Shown: positions 4,430 through 37,548 of the stretch, in pieces
Layout: every line of letters starts with the position of its first letter
Position numbering within the stretch: the first letter of the stretch is position 1
Origin: Streptomyces albidochromogenes
GTDB taxonomy: Bacteria > Actinomycetota > Actinomycetes > Streptomycetales > Streptomycetaceae
Length of the DNA: 37,548 nt
Reading direction: 5' to 3'
NCBI RefSeq assembly: GCF_005981925.1
Contig: NZ_VBVX01000025.1
Location: forward strand, 1 to 37,548
The notes under the pieces: model-generated
Databases searched by the model: none
What the model was told of the DNA's origin: nothing
What the model saw: only the letters and a program-made list of their open reading frames with translations
Translations under genes and position numbers: made by a program

Positions 4430-4466
4430 GACCACTCCACAAGAGACCAACAGCCGATCACGAACA

Positions 4467-4500: not shown

Positions 4501-4535
4501 CCATGCAGGCCGATCATCTGAAGGGATCCCGACCT

Positions 4536-5402: not shown

Positions 5403-5419
5403 GCGATCGGAGGACTCAG

Positions 5420-5905: not shown

Positions 5906-5959
5906 CCTCGAAGGGCCCGCGCAGCCGGGCCCTCCCTGCGCTTCGTCCTTGGAGGACGC

Positions 5960-6706: not shown

Positions 6707-6727
6707 GACGAGATGGAGGAACAACGC

Positions 6728-7834: not shown

Positions 7835-7856
7835 GCCACGTCCGGCACCACCAGTG

Positions 7857-7889
7857 AGGGCCAGTCCGCACCCCGTGCGGACTGGCCCT
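7857..7889 (+). terminator. Strong terminator after the SpdB-like gene
   Basis: A perfect 15-bp stem (AGGGCCAGTCCGCAC at 7857-7871 with its complement at 7875-7889) with a CCC loop begins 22 bp past the stop. It separates the SpdB-like transcript from the TraB-like gene. Confidence 0.8.
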
Positions 7890-7932
7890 TGCTGCGACTG
7901 CCGGAACCAGCACCACGCAGTCGACCGGTGCA

Positions 7933-7994
7933 GACCCGGTGAGTGACCCGGTGAGCGAACGCCTGCGTTCGCAGACCCGGGGAGCAGACCCGGC
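7933..7994. other. Candidate clt/TRS transfer locus: four GACCCGG repeats around a palindrome
   Basis: GACCCGG occurs at 7933, 7945, 7974 and 7987 in the same orientation. The first two and last two copies flank the perfect dyad GCGAACGC-CT-GCGTTCGC (7955-7972). Related CGAACG-TG-CGTTCG follows at 8021-8034. From memory, the TraB of Streptomyces plasmid pSVH1 binds clt DNA through 8-bp repeats of consensus GACCCGGA. Here seven of eight positions agree, and the cluster sits directly upstream of the TraB-like gene. Single GACCCGG copies occur elsewhere in the window by chance; the clustering is what matters. Confidence 0.6.
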
Positions 7995-8070
7995 GTAGCA
8001 CCACAAAACCCATATGAATGCGAACGTGCGTTCGATTATGTTCGCCGGTTCAAGATCGGAAGGAGGGGGT

Positions 8071-9693: not shown

Positions 9694-9727
9694 CCGTCAC
9701 CCGGCACCGCACCCGCACCGCACCTGG

Positions 9728-9777
9728 ACCGCACCCGCACCGTCACCCGGCCTGCCGGGTGACGGTGCGGGTGCGGT
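9728..9777 (+). terminator. Perfect 24-bp hairpin between traB-like and transglycosylase genes
   Basis: The arms 9728-9751 and 9754-9777 are exact reverse complements separated by only CT. The region from 9698 is built from short GCACC/GCACCC repeats. The hairpin begins 35 bp after the translocase stop and lies about 80 bp before the next start. It is likely a terminator or an expression-tuning structure. Confidence 0.75.
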
Positions 9778-9860
9778 GGACGGAGCTCCGGGTGCGGTCA
9801 CGGGTGACGGTCCTGACCAGCAAGAACAGCCAGAACCCCCGAAAGGAGGGAGGAGACTCT

Positions 9861-10859
9861 TTGCGTGCCTCAGCAGCCGTCACCATCGGCGTGGGAGCGA
9901 CCGCGGCCGTCGTCGTGGCCGCGCTCATACAGACCGCCGGCGACGACCCCATAGGGACAGCGCTCAGCATGTCCGTCCCCGCCGACTACAAACAGCTGAT
10001 CGAGGAAGCGGGCAACACCTGCCCCGAGATCACACCGAACATACTCGCCGCGCTGCTCACGCAGGAATCCGGATTCAATCCGAAAGCGCGGTCGCCGGTC
10101 GGCGCACAGGGCATTGCGCAGTTCATGCCGTCCACGTGGGAAACCCACGGAATCGACGGCAACAAAGACGGCAAGCGCGACGCATGGGACCCCGAGGACG
10201 CGATCCCCTCATCGGCCAAGTACCTGTGCACCATCGCCAAGGACGTCAAGGACGTCCCCGGCAACAAACAGCACAACATGCTCGCCGCCTACAACGCAGG
10301 AAGCGGCGCCGTCCAAAAGTACGGAGGAATCCCCCCGTACAAGGAAACACAGAACTATGTGCGGTCCATTACCGCACTCGCCAACACGCATTCCGGCGGC
10401 GGCGGTAAACCCGCCACCACCCAACAGGCCGCTACCGCCGTGAACGCGGCGAAAGCAATGATCGGCACCCCGTACTCGTGGGGCGGAGGAACCGCAAGCG
10501 GCCCGAGTACGGGTACCTGCTGCTCACCCCGAGGCCGCTCGGGTGCGTCGATATCCGGTTTCGACTGCTCCGGGCTCACGCTCTACGCCTATGCGAAGGC
10601 CGGTATCAACCTGCCCCGCACGGCAGCCCAGCAATACGCCGCATCAAAGCCCGTCAAACCCGGGGAAGTGCGTGCCGGAGATCTCGTCTTCTACGGCACC
10701 AGCGCCACGAGCATTCACCACGTCGGCATTTACATCGGCGGCGGCTGGATGATCGACGCCCCCCGGCCCGGCACCAAAGTCCGCTATTCACCCCTGGACA
10801 CGATGACCGACCTGTTCGCGGTCGGCCGGCCCGTACCGCCCAACAACAAGGAGATCTGA
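9861..10859 (+). CDS. Bifunctional peptidoglycan hydrolase: SLT transglycosylase plus NlpC/P60
   Basis: A 332-residue wall hydrolase. An N-terminal signal anchor (AVTIGVGATAAVVVAALIQT) is followed by a soluble lytic transglycosylase domain with catalytic Glu about 69 in LLTQESGFNP, then GAQGIAQFMPSTW and MLAAYNAGSGAV. A Gly-rich linker leads to an NlpC/P60 domain with Cys about 236 in GFDCSGL and His about 287 in HHVGIYIGGG. The same two-domain plan occurs in CwlT/Orf14 proteins of Gram-positive type IV secretion systems, which open the wall for DNA transfer. I chose TTG 9861 after GGAGGGAGGAG; the frame is open further upstream through the hairpin but is not credible as protein. Confidence 0.85.
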   Translation: MRASAAVTIGVGATAAVVVAALIQTAGDDPIGTALSMSVPADYKQLIEEAGNTCPEITPNILAALLTQESGFNPKARSPVGAQGIAQFMPSTWETHGIDGNKDGKRDAWDPEDAIPSSAKYLCTIAKDVKDVPGNKQHNMLAAYNAGSGAVQKYGGIPPYKETQNYVRSITALANTHSGGGGKPATTQQAATAVNAAKAMIGTPYSWGGGTASGPSTGTCCSPRGRSGASISGFDCSGLTLYAYAKAGINLPRTAAQQYAASKPVKPGEVRAGDLVFYGTSATSIHHVGIYIGGGWMIDAPRPGTKVRYSPLDTMTDLFAVGRPVPPNNKEI

Positions 10860-10862
10860 CCC

Positions 10863-11138
10863 ATGCGCAAGTTCATCACCCTCGCCAAGCCGCAGGACCT
10901 GTCCAGCGGCTTCAAGGACTTCTTCGACACGATCGGCCTGACCGGCGGCGGTCTGGTCACCAAGGGCATCGCCGCCGTGATCGCCGTGATCGCGGTCCGC
11001 ATGCTGCTCCAGCTGTCCAACGACCCCAAGGGCGCCCTGCGCAAGGGGTCGATGGCCATCGGCACCCTGTTCGTCGCCGTCGTGCTCGCCCTCTACGGCG
11101 GCACGCTGTTCTCGACCGTCACCGAAGCCAAGGGCTAA
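10863..11138 (+). CDS. Small two-TM protein, pilin-like or T4SS component
   Basis: A 91-residue protein starting 3 nt after the hydrolase stop (AAGGAG upstream). It has two hydrophobic segments (GIAAVIAVIAVRMLLQL; MAIGTLFVAVVLALYGGTLF) with a short polar loop between them. Size and layout fit VirB2/TrbC-like or other small inner-membrane parts of type IV secretion. Position between the wall hydrolase and a VirB6-like gene supports this. There is no cleavable signal peptide, so a true pilin is uncertain. Confidence 0.55.
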   Translation: MRKFITLAKPQDLSSGFKDFFDTIGLTGGGLVTKGIAAVIAVIAVRMLLQLSNDPKGALRKGSMAIGTLFVAVVLALYGGTLFSTVTEAKG

Positions 11139-11140
11139 GC

Positions 11141-12448
11141 ATGCCGGACAAGGACGAAGATCCGTGTGACCTCCTGGAAGGCACACCAGCCCACGACTAC
11201 TGCAGCGGCGACGGGTCCTCGAAGGAACCGCCCGGCGCCAGCACACGCGACGGAATCACCGACGGGGCCTCCGACCACGTCAAAGACCTCGCCGACTACC
11301 TGATCAGGACTCTCAAAGGGCTAGTGGCACCGGAGAAGGGATGGGCACCGGAGAAGCCGGACAACTGGGTGTACGAGCAGTTCCTGTCGCTCGGTCAGCA
11401 CCTGGCCGTCGCGATCTTCGTGTGCGTGGTCGTCGTCTGCGCCCTGACCGCCTGGCAGGGCGCACCCCGCCTCAAGCAGATGGGCGCCTCGACCGGGTGG
11501 ACGCTCGCGGCCGTCGCCGGCATGGCGGCGGTCCCGGGGGCCGTGATGATGCTGAACAAGGCCGTCAGCAGAGCGTTCAGCGTCGCGTTCGACAGCGACG
11601 AGAGCACCTTGTTCACCTCCATCAGCAAGGACCTGGAGGAAGGGGCTGATTCGGGCAACCCGCTGGCGATCCTCATCATCATCGCCGCCCTGGTCGTCGC
11701 CCTGGCCTTCGCAGCGCTGGTGTTCATGACGCGCCAGCTCGGCATCCTCGTGTTCGTGTGCATGGCACCTCTGGTGCTGGCCTCGCTCGCACGCGGAGGC
11801 GACACGTCCGCGGTCAAAGCGTGGGCGCAGCGGCTGCTGGGGTTAATGTTCGCCCCGTTCACGCTGCTGCTGGTCAGCCCGTTCGTGAAGGGCTTCGGGG
11901 GCTCACTGGTCATGGACGCTGTCCTGCTGGTCGCCGCCGATGCCCTGATGCTGCGGATGATCTTCCACGGGGTGCCCTACTTCGGGCCCAAGGTGGCCGG
12001 CGCCGCCCGGACGTTGGTGGAGCGCAACACGACCAACCCGTTGGCGCGGGCGGTCGTACGGGCTGGTGCGCCGACCGTCTACGAGCAGGAGAACACCCCG
12101 CGCGGACACCGCACGGTGGACACCCCGGGGCGTGCCATGTCCCAAGACCGGGGCGTGCTGTTCGCCGCCTACGGCATCGAGCGACAGGCACGGCCCGGAC
12201 GGCTGACTACTGCGTCGGCGGTCGCGAAGACCGGCCGGGACGCAGCCCGCACAGCGCAGATCAGCCAGGCGCGCCGTGAGGCGCGGACCGTCGTACAGCC
12301 GCAGGCACCGAACCCCCGGGTCTCCGGAGCGCCGGCACCGACACCGCAACCGGCACCCAACGGGCCGAGAGCGGCACCGAACCCTCGGACCCCGGAGGCC
12401 TCGGGACCGCATCCGCGGCCGGCACCCAACCGGTCGTCCAACCCGTAG
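11141..12448 (+). CDS. VirB6/TrbL-like polytopic membrane protein
   Basis: A 435-residue protein, start ATG 11141 two bases after the previous stop. A polar N-terminal region of about 80 residues is followed by hydrophobic segments: AVAIFVCVVVVCAL, TGWTLAAVAGMAAVPGAVMM, LAILIIIAALVVALAFAALV, LGILVFVCMAPLVLASLA, LMFAPFTLLLVSPF and SLVMDAVLLVAADALM. A Pro/Ala/Arg-rich cytosolic tail of about 130 residues ends it. VirB6/TrbL proteins form the inner-membrane channel of type IV secretion. The tail is low in complexity and probably disordered. It is part of the hydrolase-to-VirB4 operon. Confidence 0.7.
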   Translation: MPDKDEDPCDLLEGTPAHDYCSGDGSSKEPPGASTRDGITDGASDHVKDLADYLIRTLKGLVAPEKGWAPEKPDNWVYEQFLSLGQHLAVAIFVCVVVVCALTAWQGAPRLKQMGASTGWTLAAVAGMAAVPGAVMMLNKAVSRAFSVAFDSDESTLFTSISKDLEEGADSGNPLAILIIIAALVVALAFAALVFMTRQLGILVFVCMAPLVLASLARGGDTSAVKAWAQRLLGLMFAPFTLLLVSPFVKGFGGSLVMDAVLLVAADALMLRMIFHGVPYFGPKVAGAARTLVERNTTNPLARAVVRAGAPTVYEQENTPRGHRTVDTPGRAMSQDRGVLFAAYGIERQARPGRLTTASAVAKTGRDAARTAQISQARREARTVVQPQAPNPRVSGAPAPTPQPAPNGPRAAPNPRTPEASGPHPRPAPNRSSNP

Positions 12449-12566
12449 GAGAGCCGACGATTACTGGCCCCGGTGCGCTGTCCCGCTCTGCGCGGCAACA
12501 GCGCACCGGGGCCAGGCCGTCTGCCAGCCCAGCCGCATAGGCGGCGTGTATCTCGAGGAGGAACTT

Positions 12567-13640
12567 GTGTATTCCCTGACGCCTGGCTACCGCGTTCCCG
12601 CGCTGCAGCGCGGACTCAGCCCCGTGGAGGCGATGCTGACTAAGGTCAACGCCGGGGTCGGGGGCGCCGTACTCATGTCGGCAATGATCACCCCACCGCC
12701 CGTCTGGACCTTTGGTGCGGTGGGTGCGGCCGCGGCGCTGCTGAACGCGGCACCCGGGCCCCGCTCGATCGCACGATGGGCGGCCGTCGGCTACCGGCAC
12801 CTGCGGGAGCGCGCCGTCCCGGATGCCATGGTCCGGCAGCCGGGTGCAACAACGACCTGGGCGCTGTACCCGGACCACGGCACCATGCAGGACCCGCACC
12901 GCCGGCCCGCATTCCATGACGCGTTCTCGCGCGCCCTGACGTTCGCCGGCAACCAGGCCCGCACCGCGGGCATCCAGGTGCATGTCACCCACCACGCCTC
13001 TGTCAGCGACCACACCGCCCACACACAGACGATCTCCGTCCACGTTCCCAAGGGGCTGGTCGGCCAGCCAACCCGCGTACTCGACACCCTGGCAGGCGAG
13101 TTCGCCACTCTCGGTGTACTGACACCGCTCGATCCGGAGCCGATTCCCGTTGTGGCCGAACGCGGCCCCGGCTGGGTCGGCCTGGACGACGGCCGGTACG
13201 CGGCGACCGCACGGATCACCGCATGGCCCGAGGAGACCGGCGGAGACCTCATGCCGAAGCTGCTGCTCGGCCAGCACACGGACCGGTCCATTGGCGTCCT
13301 GTACCGACCACTGACGGCAGCCCAGTCCCGCCGGTCGACCAAGTGGCAGGAGGCCGCGGGCGAGGCCTTCACCACCGACAAGATCAAACAGGAAGCACAG
13401 GCCCACACCAGCCACACCCGGCGCGGCGCGCTCGTCCAGGGCGCGACGCTCGTGGACCTCGACGCCTATCTGACGGTGTGGGGCGACAGCCCAGGAGCCG
13501 TCACGGACGCCCGCTGGCAGACCGTACTCACGGCTGACCGGCACCGCATCAACCTGGACTGGCTCACCGGCCAGCAGCACCGCGCTCACGTGATGACCAC
13601 CCCCCGCGGAGCCTCCACCCGGAAAGGGACGATCCTGTGA
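12567..13640 (+). CDS. PrgI-like membrane protein with VirB4 N-domain-like region
   Basis: A 357-residue protein. The start is GTG 12567 after GAGGAGG at 5 nt; upstream sequence in frame is Arg-rich and not credible. Residues about 20-55 hold one or two hydrophobic segments (VGGAVLMSAMITPPPVWTFGAVGAAAALL), similar to PrgI-family proteins. The rest is soluble and lacks a Walker motif (VHVTHHASVSDHTAHTQTISV; RITAWPEETGGDLMPKLLLG; LVDLDAYLTVWGD), which resembles the N-terminal domain preceding the ATPase in VirB4. The stop overlaps the ATPase gene start by 4 nt, so the two may work as one split VirB4. This domain reading is inference. Confidence 0.6.
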   Translation: MYSLTPGYRVPALQRGLSPVEAMLTKVNAGVGGAVLMSAMITPPPVWTFGAVGAAAALLNAAPGPRSIARWAAVGYRHLRERAVPDAMVRQPGATTTWALYPDHGTMQDPHRRPAFHDAFSRALTFAGNQARTAGIQVHVTHHASVSDHTAHTQTISVHVPKGLVGQPTRVLDTLAGEFATLGVLTPLDPEPIPVVAERGPGWVGLDDGRYAATARITAWPEETGGDLMPKLLLGQHTDRSIGVLYRPLTAAQSRRSTKWQEAAGEAFTTDKIKQEAQAHTSHTRRGALVQGATLVDLDAYLTVWGDSPGAVTDARWQTVLTADRHRINLDWLTGQQHRAHVMTTPRGASTRKGTIL

Positions 13641-15775
13641 TCCGCCTGCCCTCCACCCACGCCGCCATCACGGCCCCGCTCGTCGCCTCCAGCACCCGCT
13701 TCCCGGGCATCCCGATCGGCCGGTCCCTGCTGGACGGGCGCCCGTTCCACCTCTCCCCCGCCCTGACCGACGACCGCGTCCTGCCCTCTACGAACTGCCT
13801 TGCCCTCGGCGGACTCGGTTCGGGCAAATCCACGACGTCGAAGACGCGGGGCCATCGCGAGATCCGCGACCACGGTCACCAGTACGTCGTCATCGACTCC
13901 TTCGGAGAGGACAACTCCGGGGAATGGGCACCCCTGACCCGCTCCCTGCGAGGCAGGGTCATCAAGGCCGGGGACTTCACCCTGAACCCCTGCTCCGGCC
14001 TGTTCCCTACCGAGGTCCGCGAACAGCTCATCCGCTCGCTGATCGCCGCCGTCGAACCCACCGCCCTCACCCACCAGGCCACCCACGCACTCCAGCACGC
14101 CCTGAACCACCCCAAGGCGACGTCGCTGAACGGCCTGGTGGACGCCCTGGTCCAGCCTCAGGCGGGCAGGTGGCCGACCGCCAAACTGACCGAGTGGGGC
14201 GAGGGCGCAGCCATCGCGCTCTCCCGCTACACCGAAGGCAGCCTGCGCGGCCTGTTCGACGGCCAGGACGCCAGCCTCCCGGAGACAGACCTGCCGATCC
14301 TGTCCTTCGACTTCTCCCACCTGGACCGCAACTCCCCCGCGATCCCGTCGCTGATGGCCGCCATCTCCTGCTGGGCCGAACACGTCTGGCTGCCCCAGTC
14401 AACCGCCCCCCACCGACACCTCGTCCTCGAGGAGGCGTGGCAGATCCTGCTGTCGCCGGCCACCAGCGAACTGATCCAGCGACTCCTGAAGAACTCCCGT
14501 AAGGCCGGGTTATCGGTGGAAGCGGTCATGCACACGCTGTCCGACCTCGGCGCCGGCAAAGCCCAGGACCTGGCCCGCCTGATCGAGATCGCGCACGTCG
14601 GACGCCTCGGCCCGGAAGAGGCCGGCATCGTCGGCGCCCTGCTCGGCCTGCCCGCATGGGCCGTCGACAAGATCCCGACCCTGGAGCCGGGGCAGGCCGT
14701 GTGGAAGGTCGGCCCCGACTACGTCGACATCGTCCAGACCATCCTCACCGGGGAGGAGGCCGCACTGACTGACACATCATCGCGGCGCCGCCAGGCACAA
14801 CAGGCCCACCCGGTCGAACACGAAACCGATACGACTGCGACCGAGCCTGACGAGAGCATCGACGACGACCAGAGCCAGGACGTGGCGGCGCCGGTCGAAC
14901 AGGACCCCAGCGAGGGTGGTGACGCTGACTGGGACTGGGACATGCCCGTCAACGTCATCGACACCCGCCACCACGATGCCGTTCTGGCCGCCAGGGAGGG
15001 ACGGTGCAGCGAGGCCGCCCAACTCGCCGCCCTCGGGGAACGCGAGGACATCACCACCCACGGCATCAACTCCGACGAGGCCCTCTCGTGGCTCGCGACC
15101 CGGGCCCGGGTCGCGGAACTGTGCGGAAGCCCTGACCAAGCGGTGCGGCTGCGCGCTACCGTCACCCGCATGGGCAAGGACGTCGAGTGGTTCGATCGGA
15201 GCGGCGACAGCACGTCACCGGAGTGGTATCGCGGGCCCCAGCCCGAGCCGCCCACACCAACCGCAGACGACACTGCCCCGCCCACCCGTCGGCGCACGTG
15301 GCCCTACATCGCCGCAATCGCGGCCCTGGCCATCGCGGCGTCAGTCGTGTGGCAGAACGCCTCGGACGAGAAATCCCGCGAGGAACGCCAAGAGAAAGCC
15401 GCTGCGTACAAGGGCCGGTCGGGAGCCGCGCTTGACATCGACGGCGTCAATGCGGACTTGGTGGCCCGCTGGACCAAGGACAGGACCCGCGTGATTCTCG
15501 TGCTTAGTTCGTACTTCGATCAGGACGCCAGGTATCTGAGGATCGACGCATCAGACAAGAGCGCCAGCACTACCCGGGAGAACGATTACTTCCCCGAGGA
15601 CCCTGAGATCGCGATGCCGGTGAAGGACCCTCTCGCTGACGTGACGGTCCGGGTGGCGATCGGTGGAAAGAGCTGGAAGGAGGGCTCCCGGGCTCCTTCC
15701 CGGACAGTCCGCCTGTCCCCCACCGGTACTGCCTTCGACGCTGAGACCGGGAAGCAACTGCCCTCCGATCTATGA
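13637..15775 (+). CDS. VirB4-like type IV secretion ATPase with C-terminal membrane extension
   Basis: A 712-residue protein, start GTG 13637 overlapping the upstream stop. Walker A is GGLGSGKST (58-66) and Walker B LVLEEAW (262-268), with the Glu-Glu-Ala-Trp form typical of VirB4/TrbE; ARLIEIAHVGRLG follows. VirB4 powers assembly and substrate passage in type IV secretion. Walker A lies only 58 residues from the start, so the usual N-terminal domain is absent and is probably supplied by the preceding gene. Beyond residue 380 is an acidic linker, a helical part (445-520), a membrane segment (555-572, WPYIAAIAALAIAASVVW) and a roughly 140-residue tail that would lie outside. Residues 184-194 are encoded by the sequence matched by a CRISPR spacer of this window. 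Confidence 0.8.
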   Translation: MIRLPSTHAAITAPLVASSTRFPGIPIGRSLLDGRPFHLSPALTDDRVLPSTNCLALGGLGSGKSTTSKTRGHREIRDHGHQYVVIDSFGEDNSGEWAPLTRSLRGRVIKAGDFTLNPCSGLFPTEVREQLIRSLIAAVEPTALTHQATHALQHALNHPKATSLNGLVDALVQPQAGRWPTAKLTEWGEGAAIALSRYTEGSLRGLFDGQDASLPETDLPILSFDFSHLDRNSPAIPSLMAAISCWAEHVWLPQSTAPHRHLVLEEAWQILLSPATSELIQRLLKNSRKAGLSVEAVMHTLSDLGAGKAQDLARLIEIAHVGRLGPEEAGIVGALLGLPAWAVDKIPTLEPGQAVWKVGPDYVDIVQTILTGEEAALTDTSSRRRQAQQAHPVEHETDTTATEPDESIDDDQSQDVAAPVEQDPSEGGDADWDWDMPVNVIDTRHHDAVLAAREGRCSEAAQLAALGEREDITTHGINSDEALSWLATRARVAELCGSPDQAVRLRATVTRMGKDVEWFDRSGDSTSPEWYRGPQPEPPTPTADDTAPPTRRRTWPYIAAIAALAIAASVVWQNASDEKSREERQEKAAAYKGRSGAALDIDGVNADLVARWTKDRTRVILVLSSYFDQDARYLRIDASDKSASTTRENDYFPEDPEIAMPVKDPLADVTVRVAIGGKSWKEGSRAPSRTVRLSPTGTAFDAETGKQLPSDL
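14186..14217 (-). other. Protospacer in the virB4-like gene matched by a local CRISPR spacer
   Basis: The 32 bases match the spacer at 30212-30243 at 31 positions. The one difference is A at 14209 against C at 30235. It is the third base of an Ala codon (GCA/GCC), so the encoded LTEWGEGAAIA is unchanged. In crRNA orientation it is spacer position 9, just outside the seed. The triplet 5-prime of the protospacer is AGC, not the AAG preferred by E. coli type I-E. Confidence 0.9.
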
Positions 15776-25438: not shown

Positions 25439-25849
25439 GGCAGCATTCTGGACCGGCCACGCCGGCAGGCACAGGCCCGGTGGCCGCTGGCGCTTGGGCG
25501 GAAGAGCACTCGCACGGCCTCCCTTGGGTGGAACGATCACGGTGTGGCTGGTGTGATCACGGCGTCGGAGCCGTCCTAATTCCTTGGTAACGGGCCGTGG
25601 GAGCCGGGGGTTTCCACCAGTCCGTTCGAGCGCTGGGGGGCCGATGCCCTTCTCTCGTCCCGGCCTTCCACAGTGCAGGTGGTGGCAGCCTCGCGGGCAC
25701 CGAACGTACGCCTGGAGCCGTCTGGGCACTCGATCCCTTTATCCAGAGCGGCGGCGCTCGGTGTCTTCGAGGTCGCCACCGTCAACACTGTCCGCTTGAT
25801 CACTCGTTTGTGTTGGTGGTGCGAGCCCGCCGCACGGTGACCTCCTGAT
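25439..25849. other. Non-coding gap left of the IS110 element
   Basis: No convincing gene. It holds a dyad GATCAC...GTGATC with a repeated GATCACGG (about 25537-25562) just upstream of the leftward hypothetical gene, which could be an operator. The rest has weak, Arg/Ser-rich frames only. The left boundary of the IS110 element probably lies here or a little to the right. Confidence 0.35.
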
Positions 25850-26023
25850 ACTCCAGAGCCGCCAGAGCTCCCGAGGAGACCGGGGCCCGTGGGGTGCGCT
25901 GGTGCCACGAACGGCTAGTGAGGTGGCGGACCGACCGAATGGTCGAGTCCTGGAATTAGGTCGCTGCGTGGCCCGCATGCGCTCGCAACCAGCGCAAACA
26001 CCGCACCTCTGGGGAGGAAAGAG
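25850..26023 (+). ncRNA. Candidate bridge RNA region of the IS110 element
   Basis: IS110-family elements encode a structured bridge RNA in the non-coding end before the transposase, which pairs with target and donor DNA. The 170 or so bp before the TTG start have no gene. They contain a hairpin at 25928-25950: GGAC-CGACC, loop GAAT, GGTCG-A-GTCC, 9 pairs with one bulge. The exact RNA ends and guide loops cannot be set by eye. The assignment rests on family knowledge and position. Confidence 0.4.
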
Positions 26024-27262
26024 TTGATCTACTGCGGCATCGACTGGGCCGAGAGGACACACGACGTTGCCTTGGTCGACGACACCGGCCAGCTACTTGC
26101 GAAGCGACACATCACCGACGACGCGGCCGGCTACAGGAACCTGCTGGAACTGCTCGCCGAGTACGGCGACACGGAGGAGACCCCGATCCCGGTCGCGATC
26201 GAGACCTCCCGCGGTCTGCTGGTCGCGGTGCTGCGGGCAGGCAAGCGAAAGGTGTTCGCGATCAACCCGATGGCTGCCGCCCGCTACCGCGACCGGCACG
26301 CAGTCTCCCGCAAGAAGTCCGACCCCGGCGATGCCCTGGTCCTGGCGAACATCCTGCGCACGGACATGCATGCCCACCGGCCGCTGCCGAACGACAGCGA
26401 CCTGGCCCGCGCCATCGCCGTACTGGCCCGCGCTCAGCAGGACGCGGTCTGGAACCGGCAACAGGTCGCCAACCAGCTCCGCTCCCTGCTGCGCGAGTAC
26501 TACCCCGCCGCTCTGGAGGCCTTCGCCAAGTGGGACAACGGCTTATGCCGACCCGAGGCCCGCGAGCTGATGAAGCTCGCGCCGACACCGGCCAAGGCCG
26601 CGAGCCTGACTCGCACCCAGATCACGGCGGCTCTCAAGCGTGCGGGCCGCAAGCGCGGCATCGAGTCGGACGCCGAGCGGCTGCGCGAGGCATTCCGCAC
26701 CGACTGGGCCCGTCAGCCCGAGCTTGTCGAGGACGCGCTCGGCAAGCAGACGCTCGCCCTACTCGGACAGCTCACGGCCGCCTGCACCGCCGCCGCCGAC
26801 CTCGCCCAGGCCGTCGAGGAGGCGTTCCCGCAACACCCGGACTCCGAAATTATCCTCAGCTTCCCCGGCCTCGGTATCCAGCTTGCCGCCCGGGTGCTGG
26901 CCGAAATCGGAGACGACCGCACCCGCTTCGCGGACGCCCGCGGCCTGAAGGCCTACGCGGGCGCCTCACCCGTAACCCGGGCCTCCGGCAAGAAGTCCAG
27001 CATCACCAGACGATGGGTGAAGAACAATCGGCTCAACCACGCCGGCTACCTCTGGGCGTTCTCAGCGATCACCGCCTCACCCGGTGCCAAAGCCCACTAC
27101 CGGCGGCGACGTGACGACCACGGCGACTGGCACGCCGCTGGCCAGCGCAATCTGTTCAACCGGATGCTAGGCCAGCTCCACCACTGCCTCAAGAACCGCC
27201 GCCTGTTCGATGAGCACACCGCATTCCCGGCGCCGCAGGCCCCAGCACTGGCGGTGGCATAG
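26024..27262 (+). CDS. IS110-family transposase (DEDD recombinase)
   Basis: A 412-residue intact transposase. The N-terminal RuvC-like domain shows the DEDD residues: Asp7 in GIDWAE, Glu60 in VAIETS, Asp100 and Asp103 in KSDPGDA. A coiled-coil region follows. The C-terminal Tnp domain has SFPGLGIQLAARVLAEIGD, then GASPVTRASGKK in which Ser321 is the likely nucleophile. IS110 enzymes recombine DNA guided by a bridge RNA. The start is TTG 26024 with GGGGAGG 8 nt upstream. No frameshift or missing catalytic residue is seen, so it may be active. Confidence 0.9.
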   Translation: MIYCGIDWAERTHDVALVDDTGQLLAKRHITDDAAGYRNLLELLAEYGDTEETPIPVAIETSRGLLVAVLRAGKRKVFAINPMAAARYRDRHAVSRKKSDPGDALVLANILRTDMHAHRPLPNDSDLARAIAVLARAQQDAVWNRQQVANQLRSLLREYYPAALEAFAKWDNGLCRPEARELMKLAPTPAKAASLTRTQITAALKRAGRKRGIESDAERLREAFRTDWARQPELVEDALGKQTLALLGQLTAACTAAADLAQAVEEAFPQHPDSEIILSFPGLGIQLAARVLAEIGDDRTRFADARGLKAYAGASPVTRASGKKSSITRRWVKNNRLNHAGYLWAFSAITASPGAKAHYRRRRDDHGDWHAAGQRNLFNRMLGQLHHCLKNRRLFDEHTAFPAPQAPALAVA

Positions 27263-27324
27263 GTGATCCCGCTCACGACTCACCGCCCCCCAGAGGTCGC
27301 TCCGCAGCGTGCTTGAATCACCGG

Positions 27325-28092
27325 ATGATCGACTGGTCCACACTCCACGACGCCTACGGCCCGGCACACGCGGTACCCGGGCTGCTGGACCGAGCCATCG
27401 GCCGTGACCAGGAGGCCATCGACTGCCTTTGGGGCCGCTTGTGCCACCAGGGGACGATCACCCCGGCGAGCATCGCCGCACTGCCGCGGCTCGCGGACAT
27501 CGCGAAGACCGAGGACGCCGGGGACTGGGCGCTCGATCTGGCCGGAGCCATAGCGGGTGGCCTCCTACAACCTCACGGCGCCGACGAAGAAGTCGCACGC
27601 TGTGCGGCGACCTTGGCCGAGCTTCGCGCCATGACCGCCGCCCGGCTGCGGTCTGGCCTGGACGGAAGAATCTACCTGAGCCGACTGCGGGCCATGCTCG
27701 CGTTCGACGGCCAGACCTTGTGGTCCGAGGCCCTGGACGACTTCACCGATTCCTTCGTCACTGTCGCCTGTCCGCACTGCGACGCACCGGTGACGATCGC
27801 GGTCGGCGACTACGGCTGCTACTCCTCGATCCGGGACTGGAATCTGGGGGATGTCCACCAGGTCCCCCTCCGGCCGACCGTCCCGCACGAGCTGACCGGC
27901 ACCGGGAGGATGTTGCACGAGTCGGCCGTACGGGATGGCCAGCAACGGCTCGCCTGGGGCCTGACGCACCTGTTCGGCCAGGCGGAATGCCCAGGATGCG
28001 GGAGCATCTTCGGCATCGCAGACGAGTACGAGGCCGCCAATGCACCCGCCCCATGGGACTTCGCCCGAGGCCACACCACGGACGCTCTCTGA
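27325..28092 (+). CDS. Hypothetical protein with zinc ribbon
   Basis: A 255-residue protein starting at ATG 27325; TTG 27313 would add four residues. The N-terminal 120 residues are helical (YGPAHAVPGLLDRAIGRDQE; ALPRLADIAKTEDAGDWALD), suggesting HEAT-like repeats. The C-terminal half has CPHCDAP and CPGCGS, two CxxC pairs about 80 residues apart that could bind one zinc. It lies just right of the IS110 element and appears intact. No function assigned. Confidence 0.65.
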   Translation: MIDWSTLHDAYGPAHAVPGLLDRAIGRDQEAIDCLWGRLCHQGTITPASIAALPRLADIAKTEDAGDWALDLAGAIAGGLLQPHGADEEVARCAATLAELRAMTAARLRSGLDGRIYLSRLRAMLAFDGQTLWSEALDDFTDSFVTVACPHCDAPVTIAVGDYGCYSSIRDWNLGDVHQVPLRPTVPHELTGTGRMLHESAVRDGQQRLAWGLTHLFGQAECPGCGSIFGIADEYEAANAPAPWDFARGHTTDAL

Positions 28093-28199
28093 CGACCACC
28101 GGCAGGGCCCTCGAAATCGAACAGTGAGCTCGTGCCCGCTGTCCCGACTTGACGGCTTGACGCCGTGAGGTGTCTGGATAGCCCCGTTCTCCGGGCCGA

Positions 28200-28336
28200 G
28201 CCCTCGCGCCTTCGGGCAGCTGGTGACCGTGCTGCGACGTGAGGGTGCGGATGTGGTCCGCAAGGGCCGGCCGTGGAGCCTCCCACTGGAGGACCGGGCC
28301 CTGCTGGTGGCCGCGTACTGGCGCACGAACCTGACA
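28200..28336 (+). pseudogene. IS5-type transposase helix-turn-helix fragment
   Basis: The frame reads FGQLVTVLRREGADVV, then RKGRPWSLPLEDRALLVAAY and WRTNLT. This matches the N-terminal HTH of Streptomyces IS5-like DDE transposases (RPWSLPLEDRxLLVAAYWRTNLT). The catalytic part is absent: after about 28336 the sequence changes to a GGDEF relic. It is a transposase remnant. Confidence 0.6.
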
Positions 28337-28352
28337 TTCTGGGCACGCCACC

Positions 28353-28758
28353 GGGGACACCGCCCTCGCCGCGATCAGCGCCCGGCTCGCCGAATGGGTC
28401 GGCAAGCGCGGCATGGTCGGCAGTCTCGGAGGCGACGAATTCGCCGCCCTCACCCGTATCCGCCCTCGCCACCAGGCCCTGCACCTGGAGCATCTCGCCC
28501 TCCCTGCTCGCCCAGCCGCTTACGTACAACGGCGAGCAGCGGCCCCTCGCGGTATCCGCCGGGGCCGCGACCCCAGACACGGTCGACACACGCGACCTGG
28601 CCGTCCTCGTGCGCGCGGCCGATACGGCGATGTACGAGGGAAAGCGGAAAGGCGCGTCGTCCAGGCCCGGCCTCACCACGCTCAGACGCGCAGTGTCAAC
28701 GGCCGCCGCGAAGGCCGCCCCGGAACCCACGCCCGCCCGACCACCCACCACAGCATGA
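28353..28758 (+). pseudogene. Broken GGDEF (diguanylate cyclase) domain
   Basis: From 28353 one frame reads GDTALAAISARLAEWVGKRG and then SLGGDEFAALTRI, the signature and surroundings of a GGDEF domain. From about 28450 the frame is lost, and another frame gives the end of the domain (PLAVSAGAATPDTVDTRDLA, VLVRAADTAMYEGKRKGAS). The 5-prime half is missing, replaced by the transposase fragment. At least one frameshift or deletion has therefore destroyed the gene. The intact ancestor would have made cyclic di-GMP. Confidence 0.6.
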
Positions 28759-29279: not shown

Positions 29280-29552
29280 AGCTCAACCTCCGCTCGCGCG
29301 GAGAGCACTTCTGAGCCCGGCCGCCGGTGACGTTCTCCACCGGTTCACCTCCGCTCGCGCGGAGAGCACGTCCCCGGGCCGACGAACCTGAAGGACTACC
29401 GCGGTTCACCTCCGCTCGCACGGAGAGCACCTCGGAGCCAAGGGCGTCGACCCGATGCGGGACGGTTCACCTCCGCTCGTGCAGAGAGCACCCCGCCCAC
29501 ATCGGGCCCTGGACCTCCGCCGACGGTTCACCTCCGCTCGCGCGGAGAGCAC
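29280..29552 (-). CRISPR. Type I-E CRISPR array, distal block: 5 repeats, 4 spacers
   Basis: The 29-nt repeats start at 29280, 29341, 29402, 29463 and 29524, with 32-nt spacers between each. On the minus strand the repeat begins GTGCTCTCCGCGCGAGCGGA and ends GGTGAACCG, close in form to the E. coli I-E repeat ending GGATAAACCG. Repeats degrade leftwards: the leftmost has four changes at its canonical 3-prime end, those at 29402 and 29463 have one and two. This places the leader at the right and marks this block as the old end. Confidence 0.95.
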
Positions 29553-29596
29553 TGACGAAGGCCCCGCCCGAACCCGGACGGGACCTTTGCGTACCC

Positions 29597-29959
29597 CTAC
29601 GACGCCGCACGCGGATCGTCCGCCATCCCCAACCCCTCCAGCAGCGCATCCATGAACTCCCGGTTGCCCCGGTGTGGGAATCTCTCGTCCGCCAGCCCCT
29701 GGCACACGTCCGGTGTCCGAGGATCGTCCTCCCAGGTGCCAAAGTCGAAGTTCCAGTCCTCCCACCCGGGGGCCGCTTCGGAGACGGCGACGCTGCACAG
29801 GCGTTTGGTCTCGGCCTGGCTGAGGGAGGGCGTCGCGGTGACAGTGGCTGTGGCCGTGGCTGCCTTCTTGGCGGGCTGGTCCGGTTCGCTGCTGGAGCAG
29901 CCAGCCGTGGCTCCGCCGATGAGGAGGACGGTGATGATGGCGGCAACGGTGCGGCGCAT
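29597..29959 (-). CDS. Small lipoprotein encoded between the two CRISPR blocks
   Basis: A 120-residue protein. The start is ATG 29959 with AGGGGG upstream, in preference to an upstream start giving an unlikely extension. A signal peptide (MRRTVAAIITVLLIGGATAGC) ends in a lipobox with Cys 21, followed by SSSEPDQPAKK and a Thr/Ala-rich linker. The mature part (ETKRLCSVAVSEAAPGWEDW, then TWEDDPRTPDVCQGLADERF) has two Cys that could pair. It is probably anchored on the outer face of the membrane. Its position inside the CRISPR array on the same strand is unusual; a CRISPR role is not indicated. Confidence 0.7.
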   Translation of the reverse strand: MRRTVAAIITVLLIGGATAGCSSSEPDQPAKKAATATATVTATPSLSQAETKRLCSVAVSEAAPGWEDWNFDFGTWEDDPRTPDVCQGLADERFPHRGNREFMDALLEGLGMADDPRAAS

Positions 29960-30070
29960 GGTTCCCCCTGGGGTTCTGTGACGCGGGATGCTACCGGTGG
30001 CCAGCGGATGGTGGGGGGAACGCGAAAGCCCCAAGGGCTCGGAGTCGGTGGGGCTTCGCTGCGCCAGCCG

Positions 30071-30182
30071 TCAGTCGGCGCGCTTCGGGTAGTACACCGT
30101 CGTCTCGGCCTGCTCGGGGTGCTCCCGGAACACCGCGCTATCCAACCAGCTGCGCGCCCTCGTTGACGTCCTGTAGGGCGGA
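30071..30182 (-). pseudogene. Gene remnant abutting the CRISPR repeat
   Basis: On the minus strand, directly after the repeat, one frame reads SALQDVNE. After a one-base shift in a GGGCG run the next frame gives ARSWLDSAVFREHPEQAETT, then VYYPKRAD and a stop. This fits the C-terminal 35 or so residues of a gene whose 5-prime part is absent, with a frameshift. The part next to the repeat has spacer length (32 nt), but no second repeat follows. The family is not recognised. Confidence 0.35.
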
Positions 30183-30333
30183 CGGTTCACCTCCGCTCGC
30201 GCGGAGAGCACCTGACCGAGTGGGGCGAGGGCGCCGCCATCGCCGGTTCACCTCCGCTCGCGCGGAGAGCACACCGAGAGGGTCGTCCATCCGATGCCGC
30301 TGGCCGGTTCACCTCCGCTCGCGCGGAGAGCAC
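30183..30333 (-). CRISPR. Type I-E CRISPR array, leader-proximal block: 3 repeats, 2 spacers
   Basis: Three identical 29-nt repeats start at 30183, 30244 and 30305, with 32-nt spacers at 30212-30243 and 30273-30304. Identity of the repeats and nearness to the leader mark these as the younger spacers. The spacer 30212-30243 matches the virB4-like gene at 14186-14217. The other spacer has no match that I could see in this window. Confidence 0.95.
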
Positions 30334-30498
30334 CCTTCCGGACCTGGCCTTTTCTGACGACTTTGCTGTTTCTTTGCCGAGCGTAGTTGTACATGCTTCT
30401 CGATTCGCTGTCATCGCGCAGCGAGTGTAAGACCCGCGCCTCTCATTCACATCAGATTAGGCCATTTGGGGCTGGTGTCAGTGGGGGGTGTTATCTCT
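30334..30498. promoter_or_regulatory. CRISPR leader and divergent cas3 upstream region
   Basis: The stretch is clearly richer in A/T than its surroundings. Read on the minus strand it has A-rich runs (AAAGAAACAGCAAAG) before the first repeat, as in I-E leaders. It must also hold the cas3 promoter on the plus strand. Specific -10/-35 boxes could not be assigned with confidence. Confidence 0.65.
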
Positions 30499-33532: not shown

Positions 33533-35143
33533 ATGCCGACCAGCACGTACAACCTGATCGACCAACCGTGTGTCCCCGTGCGCTGGAAACCCGGCAGCGT
33601 GGCCTCCGGCACGCGCCCGCTCCCGGACCTCGTGGGGTTACGTGAACTGCTGCTGCGCAGCCACGACATCGAGTCCCTTGCCGTTGCTGACGCGCCCGCG
33701 CATTCAGCCCTGCTCCGCATCCTTTACGCCCTCACGGCCAAGGTGGCCGGCTTGACTGATCAGGGCTCCGAAGGCGATTGGGGTGAACGCCGTCTGGAAG
33801 TCCTCGACGCCGGCCGGCTCCCGCCCGGGGAGATCGACGCGTACTTCGAAAAGTTCAAGACTAGGTTTTTCCTGTTCGCGCCGGGCGGGCGTCCGTGGAT
33901 GCAGGATCCCCGGCTGATAGAGCAGTGCGACGCGACGAACACCGCCGGTGTCAACAAACTCATCGTCACTCGCCCCTCAGGCAACAACCACTCCTGGTTC
34001 CGGCACGACACGGACACCGCCCCCGAACCGCCGACCGCTCCCGAAGCCTTCCTCAGCCTGCTGGTGTGGCACTACTACGGGCCGTCAGGACGGTGTTCGT
34101 CCCGTGAGGTGAACGGGGTGAAAAGCGCGAGCGCCACCGCCGGACCGCTGCGGACGGCCCTGTCCTATCACCCCCAGGGCGATTCCCTCTTCGAGACGCT
34201 GCTCGCCGGCCTCGTACCACCGGAGGAGAGCGTGAGCGGGGAGGTGGACCTGTGCCCCTGGGAGCAGGAGGACCTGCCGGATCCGGATCGTCCGCCGAGG
34301 ACGTCCCGGGGGCCGCGTTCGCGGCACACCGGCCGCTCGCAGCACGCGCTGCTCCTGCTGCCGGACGAAGACAGCACCCATGTGCGGGACGCGTTCATTA
34401 CCTGGGCGTACCGGGGCGAGCGGATGCCGCGGGAGGACGACTACGTGATCTGGCAGACCAGCCAGCAGGGCAACCGCTACCCGCGTCCTGCCGACGCCGG
34501 GCGGGCGCTGTGGCGGGACCTGGACTCGCTGCTGCTGCAGCATCCGCCCGCGGGCAGCGCACACCCGCAGCAGCCCCGTGTGTTTGCGTCAGCGGTCCAG
34601 GTCTCCGAGAACCTGCGGGTGCGGGCGCTCGGCTTCGACCAGGAGGGGCAGGCCAAGGACACTCAGTTCATCGACGCGAGCACCCCGGCCGTCCTTGGCT
34701 ACGCCGAAGACAACGATCCCCGCACCGTCCCCGCCGTCGGCCGCCTGCGGCAATGCGGCGAACTGTACGGACGGCGTCTGGACCGGGCCGTCAAACGGGC
34801 CTGGGGCTCCTACGTCAGGGATGCCAAAGCGGATGGTGCGGCCTGGGCGGCAGAGGCCGGCGCCCGATACTGGCCGCGTGCCGAGGCCGAGTTCTGGGCA
34901 CGGTTCCGCCTGCTGGACCGCACCGGTGAGGTGACCGACGGCGGGTTCGACCCGGCAGCGACCCGTCGGGCGTTCCTGCGTCTGGCCGAGGAGGCGTACG
35001 ACGCGGTGACCGCGCCCTTCACCCGCACGCTGCGCGGCGCGAAGGCCGTCTCGCAGGCCCGCATCGAACTCTACGGCGGAACCCCGAAAACCCGGGCGAC
35101 CGTGCCCGGACCCCGCAGAAAAACCAAGGAGCCCACCGCATGA
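33533..35143 (+). CDS. cas8e: Cas8e (Cse1/CasA), Cascade large subunit
   Basis: A 536-residue protein with the family opening YNLIDQPCVPVRW and FFLFAPGGRPWMQDPRL. Cas8e recognises the PAM, stabilises the R-loop and recruits Cas3. The ATG at 33533 follows AGGA. The 163-bp gap after cas3 holds no gene and could carry a promoter for the cascade genes. The stop overlaps the cse2 start by 4 nt (ATGA). Confidence 0.92.
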   Translation: MPTSTYNLIDQPCVPVRWKPGSVASGTRPLPDLVGLRELLLRSHDIESLAVADAPAHSALLRILYALTAKVAGLTDQGSEGDWGERRLEVLDAGRLPPGEIDAYFEKFKTRFFLFAPGGRPWMQDPRLIEQCDATNTAGVNKLIVTRPSGNNHSWFRHDTDTAPEPPTAPEAFLSLLVWHYYGPSGRCSSREVNGVKSASATAGPLRTALSYHPQGDSLFETLLAGLVPPEESVSGEVDLCPWEQEDLPDPDRPPRTSRGPRSRHTGRSQHALLLLPDEDSTHVRDAFITWAYRGERMPREDDYVIWQTSQQGNRYPRPADAGRALWRDLDSLLLQHPPAGSAHPQQPRVFASAVQVSENLRVRALGFDQEGQAKDTQFIDASTPAVLGYAEDNDPRTVPAVGRLRQCGELYGRRLDRAVKRAWGSYVRDAKADGAAWAAEAGARYWPRAEAEFWARFRLLDRTGEVTDGGFDPAATRRAFLRLAEEAYDAVTAPFTRTLRGAKAVSQARIELYGGTPKTRATVPGPRRKTKEPTA

Positions 35144-35877
35144 CGACCACTCCCCTACCAGCCATCCCGGGCTCCACCAGCGTGTCGACAACGGCCGGCA
35201 ATGTCCCGCGACAAAGCGGTGCATCGCGGGCGGGCCGCTCAGCTGCGTTCACCAGCTGGGTCGTGCAAGTCAGCCGCGAAGACCCCGGTGCCCGCAGCGC
35301 GCTGCGCAGCGGGCTGCGCAAGGACCTCGACTCCGTGCGGCGCATGCACCGCCTCATCGCCCCGTGGCTGCCCGAACCGCGGACCGAGGATGTTGAGCGG
35401 GCGTACTACGCAATCGCCGCGATGATCGCCGCCCAGCCCCGCAGCGCACTGGCCGTACCGGCCGACGGCCCGCTTCAGCCCGACGAGGAACTGGCTGCGA
35501 CCGGGAGGGCAGGGCGGCGCCGTGCCAGTCTCGGTGCGGCTTTCGCGGCCGCGGTCACCGAGGGGCCGGGCAGGGAGAAGGAGATGCGGGTAGGGACGGC
35601 GGAGAGCCGTCTCAACCTCCTCACCCGCCAGAGCGTCAACGGCCTGCACCGACATCTGCCCTCCGCCGTCGGGTATCTGCGGTCGCTGGGCGTGGAGGTC
35701 GACTGGGCGCAGCTCCTTGATGATCTCGGTGACTGGCGCAAGCACTCGGGGCGGATCTCCCGCACATGGCTCCAGGACTTTTACCGGGTGCTGGGCAAGA
35801 AACTCGCTCAGCAGGCGGACGAAGCCGACGAGACGGAACTCACGGGCGAATCAACACCGGCCCCCGCCACACCCTGA
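35140..35877 (+). CDS. cse2: Cse2 (CasB, Cas11e), Cascade small subunit
   Basis: A 245-residue helical protein with FTSWVVQVSREDPGARSALR, RRMHRLIAPWLPEP and ERAYYAIAAMIAAQP, typical of Cse2. The C-terminal half has RLNLLTRQSVNGLHRHLPSA and WAQLLDDLGDWRKHSGRISR. Two copies usually sit on the Cascade belly and hold the R-loop. Translation is coupled to cas8e. Members in actinobacteria tend to be longer than E. coli CasB (about 160), as here. Confidence 0.88.
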   Translation: MTTTPLPAIPGSTSVSTTAGNVPRQSGASRAGRSAAFTSWVVQVSREDPGARSALRSGLRKDLDSVRRMHRLIAPWLPEPRTEDVERAYYAIAAMIAAQPRSALAVPADGPLQPDEELAATGRAGRRRASLGAAFAAAVTEGPGREKEMRVGTAESRLNLLTRQSVNGLHRHLPSAVGYLRSLGVEVDWAQLLDDLGDWRKHSGRISRTWLQDFYRVLGKKLAQQADEADETELTGESTPAPATP

Positions 35878-35890
35878 CCCCTCTCCTCAC

Positions 35891-35930: not shown

Positions 35931-35948
35931 CGAAGGAGTCACACCACC

Positions 35949-37548
<1,600 letters not shown>

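What the first reader, a model, noticed from the sequence alone, without database searches (positions are those of the whole stretch)
30212..30243. A CRISPR spacer matches the virB4-like gene of the conjugative element in the same window
Seen directly: 31 of 32 bases are shared with 14186-14217, in frame with virB4 codons 184-194. The only difference is silent (Ala GCA/GCC) and falls at spacer position 9 in crRNA orientation, just outside the seed. The neighbouring triplet is AGC, not AAG. Inference: the spacer was taken from a close relative of this element, and the resident copy is tolerated either through the non-preferred PAM, a silent escape change, or low CRISPR activity. A host holding both an I-E system and an element of the remembered family is a clear case of conflict.
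Basis: partly seen in the sequence, partly recalled or inferred. Interest (0 to 1): 0.85.

Follow-up and report, generated by a model that had tools for sequence, protein, structure and literature searches.

The report
Plasmid CRISPR spacer matching its kin
A Streptomyces stretch that looks plasmid-derived carries both a plasmid transfer-gene set and a CRISPR immune system, and one CRISPR memory fits a conserved piece of that transfer-gene family, including (almost) the copy next door, as expected if such plasmids use CRISPR against rival plasmids of their own kind.

Summary
The match is real: spacer 30212-30243 and 14186-14217 share 31 of 32 bases; the difference is silent, at crRNA position 9, and the crRNA-side flank is AGC. 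The setting needs changing. The 'conjugative element' is a transfer module colinear with linear plasmid SLP2, on one contig with the CRISPR. Close relatives of this I-E locus lie on large linear Streptomyces plasmids (one chromosomal copy is nearly as close), and at least 6 of 26 plasmid records with this VirB4-like gene also carry type I-E cas genes. So CRISPR and target probably share a plasmid or plasmid-derived region. A 31/32 match does not show a close donor: the block is at the 95th percentile of conservation, 8 of 18 homologues found by similarity lie within 3 mismatches, and the one perfect match (S. parvulus) is on a module about 76% identical. The flank is AGG in 15 of these 18, AGC in none. 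Related arrays' other spacers have AAG/AGG/GAG/CAG (13 of 15; AGC 0), and an independent array also targets this gene. Best reading: plasmid-borne CRISPR aimed at competing SLP2-family plasmids, its own copy spared mainly by AGC. Activity and selected escape are not shown. New example of a known kind.

The parts
30212..30243 (-). spacer A2 (second from the leader; crRNA reads on the minus strand)
14186..14217 (-). resident protospacer-like site, 31/32, crRNA-side flank AGC, opposite-strand flank AAA
13637..15775 (+). VirB4-like ATPase gene of the SLP2-type transfer module (homologue of SLP2 ATP/GTP-binding protein WP_011116826)
   Evidence: TIGR00929 E 1.2e-5, far below the curated cut-off; colinear with SLP2
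3556..15775 (+). SLP2-type transfer module: spdB2-like 6713-7834, FtsK/SpoIIIE 8014-9693, SLT/NlpC cell-wall hydrolase 9690-10859, two further genes, VirB4-like
   Evidence: 75-78% nt identity to SLP2 over 5.7 kb and 2.9 kb; tblastn; Pfam
2700..3449 (-). GntR/UTRA regulator upstream of the module, as in related plasmids
   Evidence: Pfam; plasmid annotations
16492..24160 (+). lanthipeptide-type cargo genes (LanB-like dehydratase; dehydratase-C/PCMT fusion; further ORF)
   Evidence: Pfam
25533..28335 (+). mobile DNA: IS110-family unit (transposase 26024-27262) inside a transposase-gene remnant; the same 2.8 kb occurs at 93.6% in plasmid NZ_CP108205.1
   Evidence: Pfam; an uninterrupted version of its ends is in SLP2
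28341..28730 (+). GGDEF-gene remnant, 5' end missing, 32-40% aa identity to the GGDEF genes downstream of the module in SLP2 and two related plasmids
   Evidence: annotations
29280..29552 (-). CRISPR array A, distal block (5 repeats, 4 spacers)
29553..30182 (-). 630-base insert between two repeats, with a lipoprotein-like ORF
30183..30333 (-). CRISPR array A, leader-proximal block (3 repeats, 2 spacers)
30334..30465 (-). leader between array A and cas3, inside a continuous 84% alignment with plasmid NZ_CP108606.1
30466..33369 (+). cas3 (HD nuclease-helicase; ORF limits)
   Evidence: Pfam
33533..35143 (+). cse1 (cas8e)
   Evidence: Pfam
35140..35877 (+). cse2
   Evidence: TIGR02548 above cut-off
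35946..37124 (+). cas7e (start estimated)
   Evidence: PF09344
37121..37548 (+). cas5e, cut by the contig end; the locus resumes at cas1 on contig C102 after an unassembled gap of about 1.09 kb that should hold the rest of cas5 and cas6
   Evidence: reading frame and alignment

Best explanation
The window is one contig of a linear plasmid (or a plasmid-derived region) with an SLP2-type conjugation module and, 14 kb from its virB4-like gene, a type I-E CRISPR-Cas locus of a kind common on large Streptomyces linear plasmids. Spacer A2 was captured from some SLP2-family plasmid at a conserved, codon-constrained block of its virB4-like gene. The captured fragment fits a protospacer with an AGG flank in normal orientation: the repeat's last G equals the last G of AGG. 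Cascade loaded with A2 should recognise incoming family members that have AGG and a clean seed (11 of 18 homologues fetched by similarity) and Cas3 should destroy them: exclusion of competing plasmids of the same family. The own virB4 escapes mainly because its Ala codon before Leu is GCG, giving AGC instead of AGG, helped by the position-9 mismatch. Shown: the match, the block's conservation, the flank distribution, the SLP2-type module on the same contig, the plasmid-type cas locus, the family PAM preference. Inferred: one shared plasmid replicon, CRISPR activity, insufficiency of AGC in this system, and the exclusion function.
For: Match. Plasmid nature: module colinear with SLP2; bases 16-165 also match SLP2-family plasmids; a GGDEF-gene remnant at 28341-28730 resembles the GGDEF gene downstream of the module in such plasmids, weakly (32-40% aa); the cas3-cse1-cse2 stretch matches 80 of 72,556 plasmid records, 16 of them over at least 80% of it, best 83.5% over 99%; window 30183-37548 aligns at 84% over 7.4 kb and C102 1-2415 at 81% with one linear plasmid, NZ_CP108606.1. 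Co-carriage: at least 6 of the 26 plasmid records with this VirB4 also carry type I-E cas7, five of them among the 60 listed of 199 cas7 records and pSglau1 by annotation. Breadth of the spacer in 18 homologues fetched by similarity: 8 within 3 mismatches, AGG in 15, AGG with clean seed in 11. PAM: 15 other spacers with best hits at 5 mismatches or fewer: AAG 7, AGG 3, GAG 2, AAC 2, CAG 1, AGC 0 (one control spacer reached that level). cas3, cse1, cse2, cas1, cas2 without internal stops, dN/dS 0.08-0.32 against plasmid homologues. The one newer spacer, A1, does not match the own genome, so no sign of self-priming.
Against: In E. coli AGC is an intermediate, priming-proficient PAM (PMC6568314, passages), so AGC alone need not spare the resident. 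A chromosomal version of the cas locus is nearly as close as the best plasmid one (G100, 6.9 Mb contig, position 602 kb, 82-83% against 84%), and SLP2-type modules also occur in chromosome-sized contigs, so a chromosomal location is possible. Array A is short (6 spacers in two blocks) and interrupted; cas6 and part of cas5 are not in the assembly. The only perfect protospacer found has AGC, not AGG, in crRNA orientation. AAG stands on the opposite strand in 15 of 26 homologues (9 of the 18), which would suit a flipped capture.
Confidence: 0.52

Rival explanations
1. Host versus element: the I-E system is chromosomal and recorded SLP2-type plasmids as ordinary immunity; an SLP2-type element with a non-matching PAM later integrated next to it.
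For: A close cas locus sits in a 6.9 Mb chromosome contig. SLP2-type modules also occur in chromosome-sized contigs, e.g. G067:C1 position 6.47 Mb.
Against: Module and CRISPR are on one contig with mobile DNA and a module-associated GGDEF remnant between them; the closest copy found is on a linear plasmid; module and type I-E cas genes share at least 6 of 26 plasmid records.
Confidence: 0.27
2. The CRISPR locus is inactive or silent, so the near-self match costs nothing and says nothing about exclusion now; it is a fossil of past encounters. (Can be true together with the best explanation's history.)
For: Short, interrupted array; cas6 unassembled. The review PMC12231136 (passages) reports no activity for pSHK1 in its laboratory test and low adaptation for S. 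avermitilis.
Against: Five cas genes tested without internal stops and with dN/dS well below 1; leader inside a continuous alignment with a plasmid locus; an active Streptomyces I-E system is known (PMC4762764, passages).
Confidence: 0.3
3. Flipped capture: the spacer came from an S. parvulus-type virB4 (32/32, AAG on the opposite strand) but was inserted the wrong way round, so the crRNA faces AGC/AGG and may never have worked well.
For: AAG on the opposite strand in 15 of 26 homologues and beside the only perfect match. Inverse insertions are described in S. avermitilis (PMC4762764, passages).
Against: An exact flipped insert would put the boundary one base away; the observed repeat/spacer junction fits an AGG source without a slip (my reading of the junction).
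Confidence: 0.2
4. Self-acquisition: the spacer was taken from the resident virB4 itself and then one of the two copies mutated.
For: Only one mismatch; S. avermitilis overexpressing Cas1-Cas2 took genomic spacers next to non-AAG triplets (PMC4762764, passages).
Against: The resident lacks AAG or AGG on either side (AGC/AAA); an identical 32-mer exists in another element; the conserved block makes an outside source as easy.
Confidence: 0.08

Closest known systems
Plasmid-borne CRISPR-Cas in plasmid-plasmid conflict (Pinilla-Redondo et al., PMC9071438, passages seen)
   Same: CRISPR on a plasmid with spacers against conjugative plasmids of the same host group; the paper also reports plasmids predicted to target plasmids in the same cell.
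   Different: Here the near-target lies in the transfer module on the same contig. The paper's held main text has no occurrence of 'Streptomyces' or 'type I-E'.
Streptomyces avermitilis type I-E system (PMC4762764, passages seen)
   Same: Same subtype, 32-base spacers, AAG PAM; its CRISPR II array is also split by inserted DNA (transposase genes); self-matching spacers lacking AAG were reported there.
   Different: Ours shares a contig with an SLP2-type plasmid transfer module, and the matched gene is a plasmid transfer gene.
pSHK1 linear-plasmid type I-E CRISPR (Guo et al. 2011, known here only through review PMC12231136, passages)
   Same: Eight cas genes and arrays on a Streptomyces linear plasmid.
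   Different: No spacer against transfer genes is described in the passages seen; no activity was found in its laboratory test.
SLP2 (NC_004933.1) of S. lividans 1326
   Same: Colinear transfer module including the VirB4-like protein (67% aa identity), GGDEF gene downstream.
   Different: No CRISPR repeat of this family in the 32 kb of SLP2 read; virB4 site has AGG and 4 mismatches, seed clean.
pSglau1, S. glaucescens (NZ_CP009439.1) and S. sp. S501 plasmid (NZ_CP038146.1)
   Same: SLP2-type module and type I-E CRISPR-Cas on one linear plasmid, the virB4-like gene about 9 and 19 kb from the cas genes.
   Different: S501 Cas7 is 60% identical, that of pSglau1 was not measured; none of their spacers matched virB4 at 5 mismatches or fewer.

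Membership tests
Type I-E CRISPR-Cas | cas3, cse1 (cas8e), cse2, cas7e in order, with cas5, cas6, cas1, cas2 | tested here: inconclusive
   cas3, cse1, cse2, cas7 and the start of cas5 in the window; cas1 and cas2 on C102, read from sequence and by alignment; cas6 not found, should lie in the gap between contigs.
Type I-E CRISPR-Cas | 29-base repeats, 32-base spacers, arrays beside cas3 and after cas2 | tested here: met
Type I-E CRISPR-Cas | AAG-type PAM | tested here: met
   13 of 15 spacers of related arrays have AAG, AGG, GAG or CAG; tested on related loci and a chosen target set, not on this locus's own spacers, of which only A2 has a known match.
Type I-E CRISPR-Cas | crRNA made and interference active | not testable with these tools
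   needs RNA and plasmid assays
SLP2-type conjugation module | ordered spdB2-like, FtsK, SLT/C40, two unknowns, VirB4-like genes | tested here: met
SLP2-type conjugation module | located on an autonomous linear plasmid with telomeres | not testable with these tools
   draft assembly of 795 contigs; the window is a whole contig without known plasmid ends
VirB4 family ATPase | score above the family's curated cut-off | tested here: not met
   TIGR00929 23.8 bits against a cut-off of 643; hence 'VirB4-like' only
Plasmid-borne CRISPR in plasmid conflict | CRISPR locus on a plasmid, spacer matching another plasmid | tested here: inconclusive
   spacer matches plasmid genes, e.g. 31/32 in NZ_CP109218.1; plasmid location of the locus inferred from context
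Escape by selected silent mutation | resident differs at PAM/seed more than drift predicts | tested here: inconclusive
   AGC in 0 of 18 homologues fetched by similarity but in 3 of 8 fetched by the spacer pattern; GCG is 21 of 87 and GCA 9 of 87 Ala codons of the gene: no excess shown

The most novel reading that the evidence does not exclude
SLP2-family linear plasmids use CRISPR as a kin-exclusion system: the array on the plasmid targets conserved blocks of the family's own transfer genes, and each plasmid exempts itself by synonymous codons at the PAM and next to the seed, giving sequence-coded self/non-self recognition between near relatives. The S. albus plasmid, whose own spacer matches its own module region with 3 mismatches including position 1, would be a second case.
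Probability: 0.15. Interest if true: 0.78.

Novelty: new member of a known kind. Interest (0 to 1): 0.5.

Why it matters
[quoted passage not shown] Here one gene, the SLP2-type virB4-like gene, is hit by spacers of two independent arrays, and related arrays also hit other genes of such plasmids. That gives a concrete testable target set for Streptomyces CRISPR and a clean natural pair (AGG/GCC versus AGC/GCA) to ask how a plasmid carrying CRISPR avoids cutting itself.

Tried and rejected
Phage origin of the spacer: no phage record matches the leader-proximal array block or array B (the distal block of array A was not searched there); no viral-contig match to the degenerate pattern. Widely repeated sequence: rejected; 8 of 392 genomes match, and in the hits examined further the site is the same gene. 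Close-donor reading: rejected after the conservation profile. Excess of silent changes at the site: no support. Recognisable anti-CRISPR: none among the ORFs scanned. Loss of cas6: not accepted, because the missing 1.09 kb falls exactly between two contig ends that align to one plasmid. Backbone from 25535-25575 and 28175-28335: I first took these SLP2 matches for plasmid backbone; searches show that they belong to a transposase-gene remnant shared by several plasmids, so I withdrew them and lowered the best explanation from 0.58 to 0.52 and raised the chromosomal rival from 0.22 to 0.27. Enrichment of transfer genes among spacer targets was not computed, because my target set (977 kb unmasked) was chosen for SLP2 relatives and CRISPR plasmids.

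Biases and dropped rows: 30 virB4 homologues became 26 (three duplicate rows and one distant 37% row). Eight of the 26 had been fetched by the spacer pattern itself, which inflates closeness; the 18 fetched by similarity are given as the main count, 6 from a genus sample and 12 plasmid loci chosen by me out of the 26-28 records. In one search two zero-mismatch hits of L034 spacers to L035 were array remnants and were not counted; one search masked wider margins. Reversed and complemented control spacers are the same test on two strands, so they count as one control.

Full report
Observation. Spacer 30212-30243 and virB4-like bases 14186-14217 differ at one base, a silent GCC/GCA in codon 191, crRNA position 9; the adjoining triplet on the crRNA strand is AGC. 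Orientation follows from the repeat, GTGCTCTCCGCGCGAGCGGAGGTGAACCG read on the minus strand with the leader beside cas3, and agrees with the AAG-type PAMs of other spacers in the same orientation. In the 7.27 Mb assembly the searches list no other credible match of either array outside the arrays (40 of 112-113 first-look candidates scored). Up to 3 mismatches, 8 of 392 genus genomes match, own included, and the reversed control matches none.

What the surroundings are. Bases 3556-15414 are colinear with the transfer region of linear plasmid SLP2, at 75-78% nucleotide identity over the two main blocks: spdB2-like, FtsK/SpoIIIE, SLT/C40 hydrolase, two unknown genes and the VirB4-like 'ATP/GTP-binding protein'. 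The VirB4 assignment is weak by profile (23.8 bits against a cut-off of 643), so I write VirB4-like. Bases 16-165 also match SLP2-family plasmids (70-78%). A lanthipeptide-type gene set follows the module. Then comes mobile DNA, 25533-28335: an IS110-family unit inside a transposase-gene remnant, found at 93.6% in plasmid NZ_CP108205.1. Its ends are contiguous in SLP2, but since they belong to a transposase gene I do not count them as SLP2 backbone. A GGDEF-gene remnant at 28341-28730 has 32-40% amino-acid identity to the GGDEF genes downstream of the module in SLP2, NZ_CP109218.1 and NZ_CP107990.1; this is weak support for module-associated DNA up to about 550 bases from the array.

The CRISPR locus. 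cas3, cse1, cse2, cas7 and the start of cas5 run off the contig. C102 begins at cas1, followed by cas2 and a second array of 18 repeats. Both contig ends align to one linear plasmid, NZ_CP108606.1, leaving 1,089 bases unassembled, which explains the absence of cas6. The cas3-cse1-cse2 stretch matches 80 of 72,556 plasmid records, 16 of them over at least 80% of it. Of nine further plasmid loci opened, eight list all eight cas genes and one (L035) lists all but cas1; all nine have arrays of the same repeat. A chromosomal relative is nearly as close: G100, 602 kb into a 6.9 Mb contig, 82-83% identical against 84% for the best plasmid. cas3, cse1, cse2, cas1 and cas2 have no internal stops and dN/dS of 0.08-0.32 against plasmid homologues. 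At least 6 of 26 plasmid records with the VirB4-like gene also carry type I-E cas7: NZ_CP038146, NZ_CP103061, NZ_CP108282, NZ_CP108001 and NZ_CP120984 in the 60 listed of 199 cas7 records, and pSglau1, NZ_CP009439, by annotation. Neither the unlisted cas7 records nor the chance level of co-carriage was examined.

What the match means. I compared the resident gene with 26 de-duplicated homologues. Eight of them had been fetched by the spacer pattern itself, so the 18 fetched by VirB4 similarity are the fairer sample. In these 18 the mean nucleotide identity is 0.732 over the gene and 0.880 in the 32-base block, the 94.8th percentile of 2,105 windows (all 26: 0.744, 0.893, 96.9th). The spacer is within 3 mismatches of 8 of 18 (16 of 26), down to a homologue with 62% amino-acid identity. 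The only perfect match found is S. parvulus JCM 4068, whose module is 76.4-76.5% identical to the window over 8.1-8.5 kb. So a 31/32 match does not identify a close donor; the spacer reads a conserved, codon-constrained block of a plasmid family. In crRNA orientation the flank is AGG in 15, AGA in 2 and AAC in 1 of 18; the three AGC cases, S. parvulus among them, are all in the pattern-fetched eight. On the opposite strand AAG stands in 9 of 18 (15 of 26), while the resident has AAA.

PAM. I took 1,306 unique spacers from the held arrays and matched them to 977 kb of unmasked held sequence. Sixteen spacers, including A2, had a hit at 5 mismatches or fewer; one control spacer did. The best hits of the other 15 have AAG (7), AGG (3), GAG (2), AAC (2) and CAG (1); none has AGC. 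Of the 13 listed, 8 have a seed mismatch, so they are remnants of matches and not proven active targets. The targets are a chosen set, so this speaks to PAM and not to enrichment. In S. avermitilis the acquired PAM is AAG (PMC4762764, abstract and passages). In E. coli AGG interferes and AGC is intermediate and primes adaptation (PMC6568314, passages). A study of mismatches in E. coli counts the eight PAM-proximal bases as seed, with every sixth base unpaired (PMC13122317, passages); position 9 lies outside.

A second virB4 spacer. The window's copy has AAG too but 7 mismatches, including positions 1 and 2. G086 has only a 37% VirB4 relative. The family is therefore a repeated target. Other hits fall in an FtsK gene (NZ_CP108608.1), a gene at the spdB2-like position (NZ_CP108667.1), the SLP2 parA gene and a regulator gene of SLP2 (with annotations).

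Mechanism. I favour a plasmid-borne type I-E system that excludes other SLP2-family plasmids. Eleven of the 18 homologues have AGG and a clean seed (13 of all 26). The own copy is spared mainly by AGC. If AGC still allowed priming, further spacers from the own plasmid would be expected on the leader side of A2; the single newer spacer does not match the own genome. This fits either no recognition or an inactive system. A2's capture from an AGG source fits the repeat/spacer junction exactly; a flipped capture from an AAG source would need a one-base slip (my reading). Selection for the silent differences is not shown: GCG and GCA are ordinary here (21 and 9 of 87 Ala codons).

Known or new. Plasmid-borne CRISPR aimed at other plasmids is documented (PMC9071438, passages), and its benefit in plasmid competition has been tested (PMC12945316, abstract). 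Plasmid-borne type I-E in Streptomyces is known from pSHK1 (through the review PMC12231136, passages). My literature searches (listings only, plus the papers named) showed no report of Streptomyces spacers against the SLP2-type VirB4-like gene; the library lacks most subscription journals. I class the case as a new member of a known kind. The bolder reading, kin exclusion with self-exemption by synonymous codons, remains open.

Noticed in passing
window 29553-30182: A 630-base insert lies exactly between two intact CRISPR repeats; it carries a lipoprotein-like ORF (29597-29959, minus). No Pfam family, no phage match. It could be an aberrant long insertion or a recombination product.
   Followed up: partly
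L056 (NZ_CP103061.1) 33331, spacer at 22685: S. albus linear plasmid: one of its own spacers matches its own SLP2-type module region with 3 mismatches (positions 1, 15, 22) and an AGG flank, a second possible near-self case.
   Followed up: partly
L034 (NZ_CP109284.1) spacer 3548, site 8180: A spacer of an S. anulatus plasmid array matches its own cas3 with 4 mismatches, clean seed and AAG.
   Followed up: no
L071 (G086:C32) spacer 738: An independent array holds another spacer against the virB4-like gene, at the block corresponding to window 13868-13899.
   Followed up: yes
L009 (C102) 1351-2416: The second array uses a slightly different repeat (GTCCTC for GTGCTC in 15 of 18 copies) and contains two directly duplicated spacers.
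   Followed up: no
window 16492-24160: Lanthipeptide-type genes (LanB-like dehydratase; a dehydratase-C domain fused to a PCMT-like methyltransferase) sit as cargo downstream of the transfer module.
   Followed up: no
window 25533-28335: An IS110-family unit sits inside a transposase-gene remnant; the same arrangement is in plasmid NZ_CP108205.1 at 93.6%, and SLP2 holds the uninterrupted junction.
   Followed up: partly
NZ_CP108606.1 and NZ_CP108608.1: Strain NBC_01174 holds both the closest CRISPR plasmid found and a small SLP2-family plasmid whose virB4 site has AGG and 2 mismatches to the window's spacer.
   Followed up: no
window 1123-2508: NsdA-family TPR-like regulator (NF053720 above its cut-off) at the left end of the contig.
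   Followed up: no
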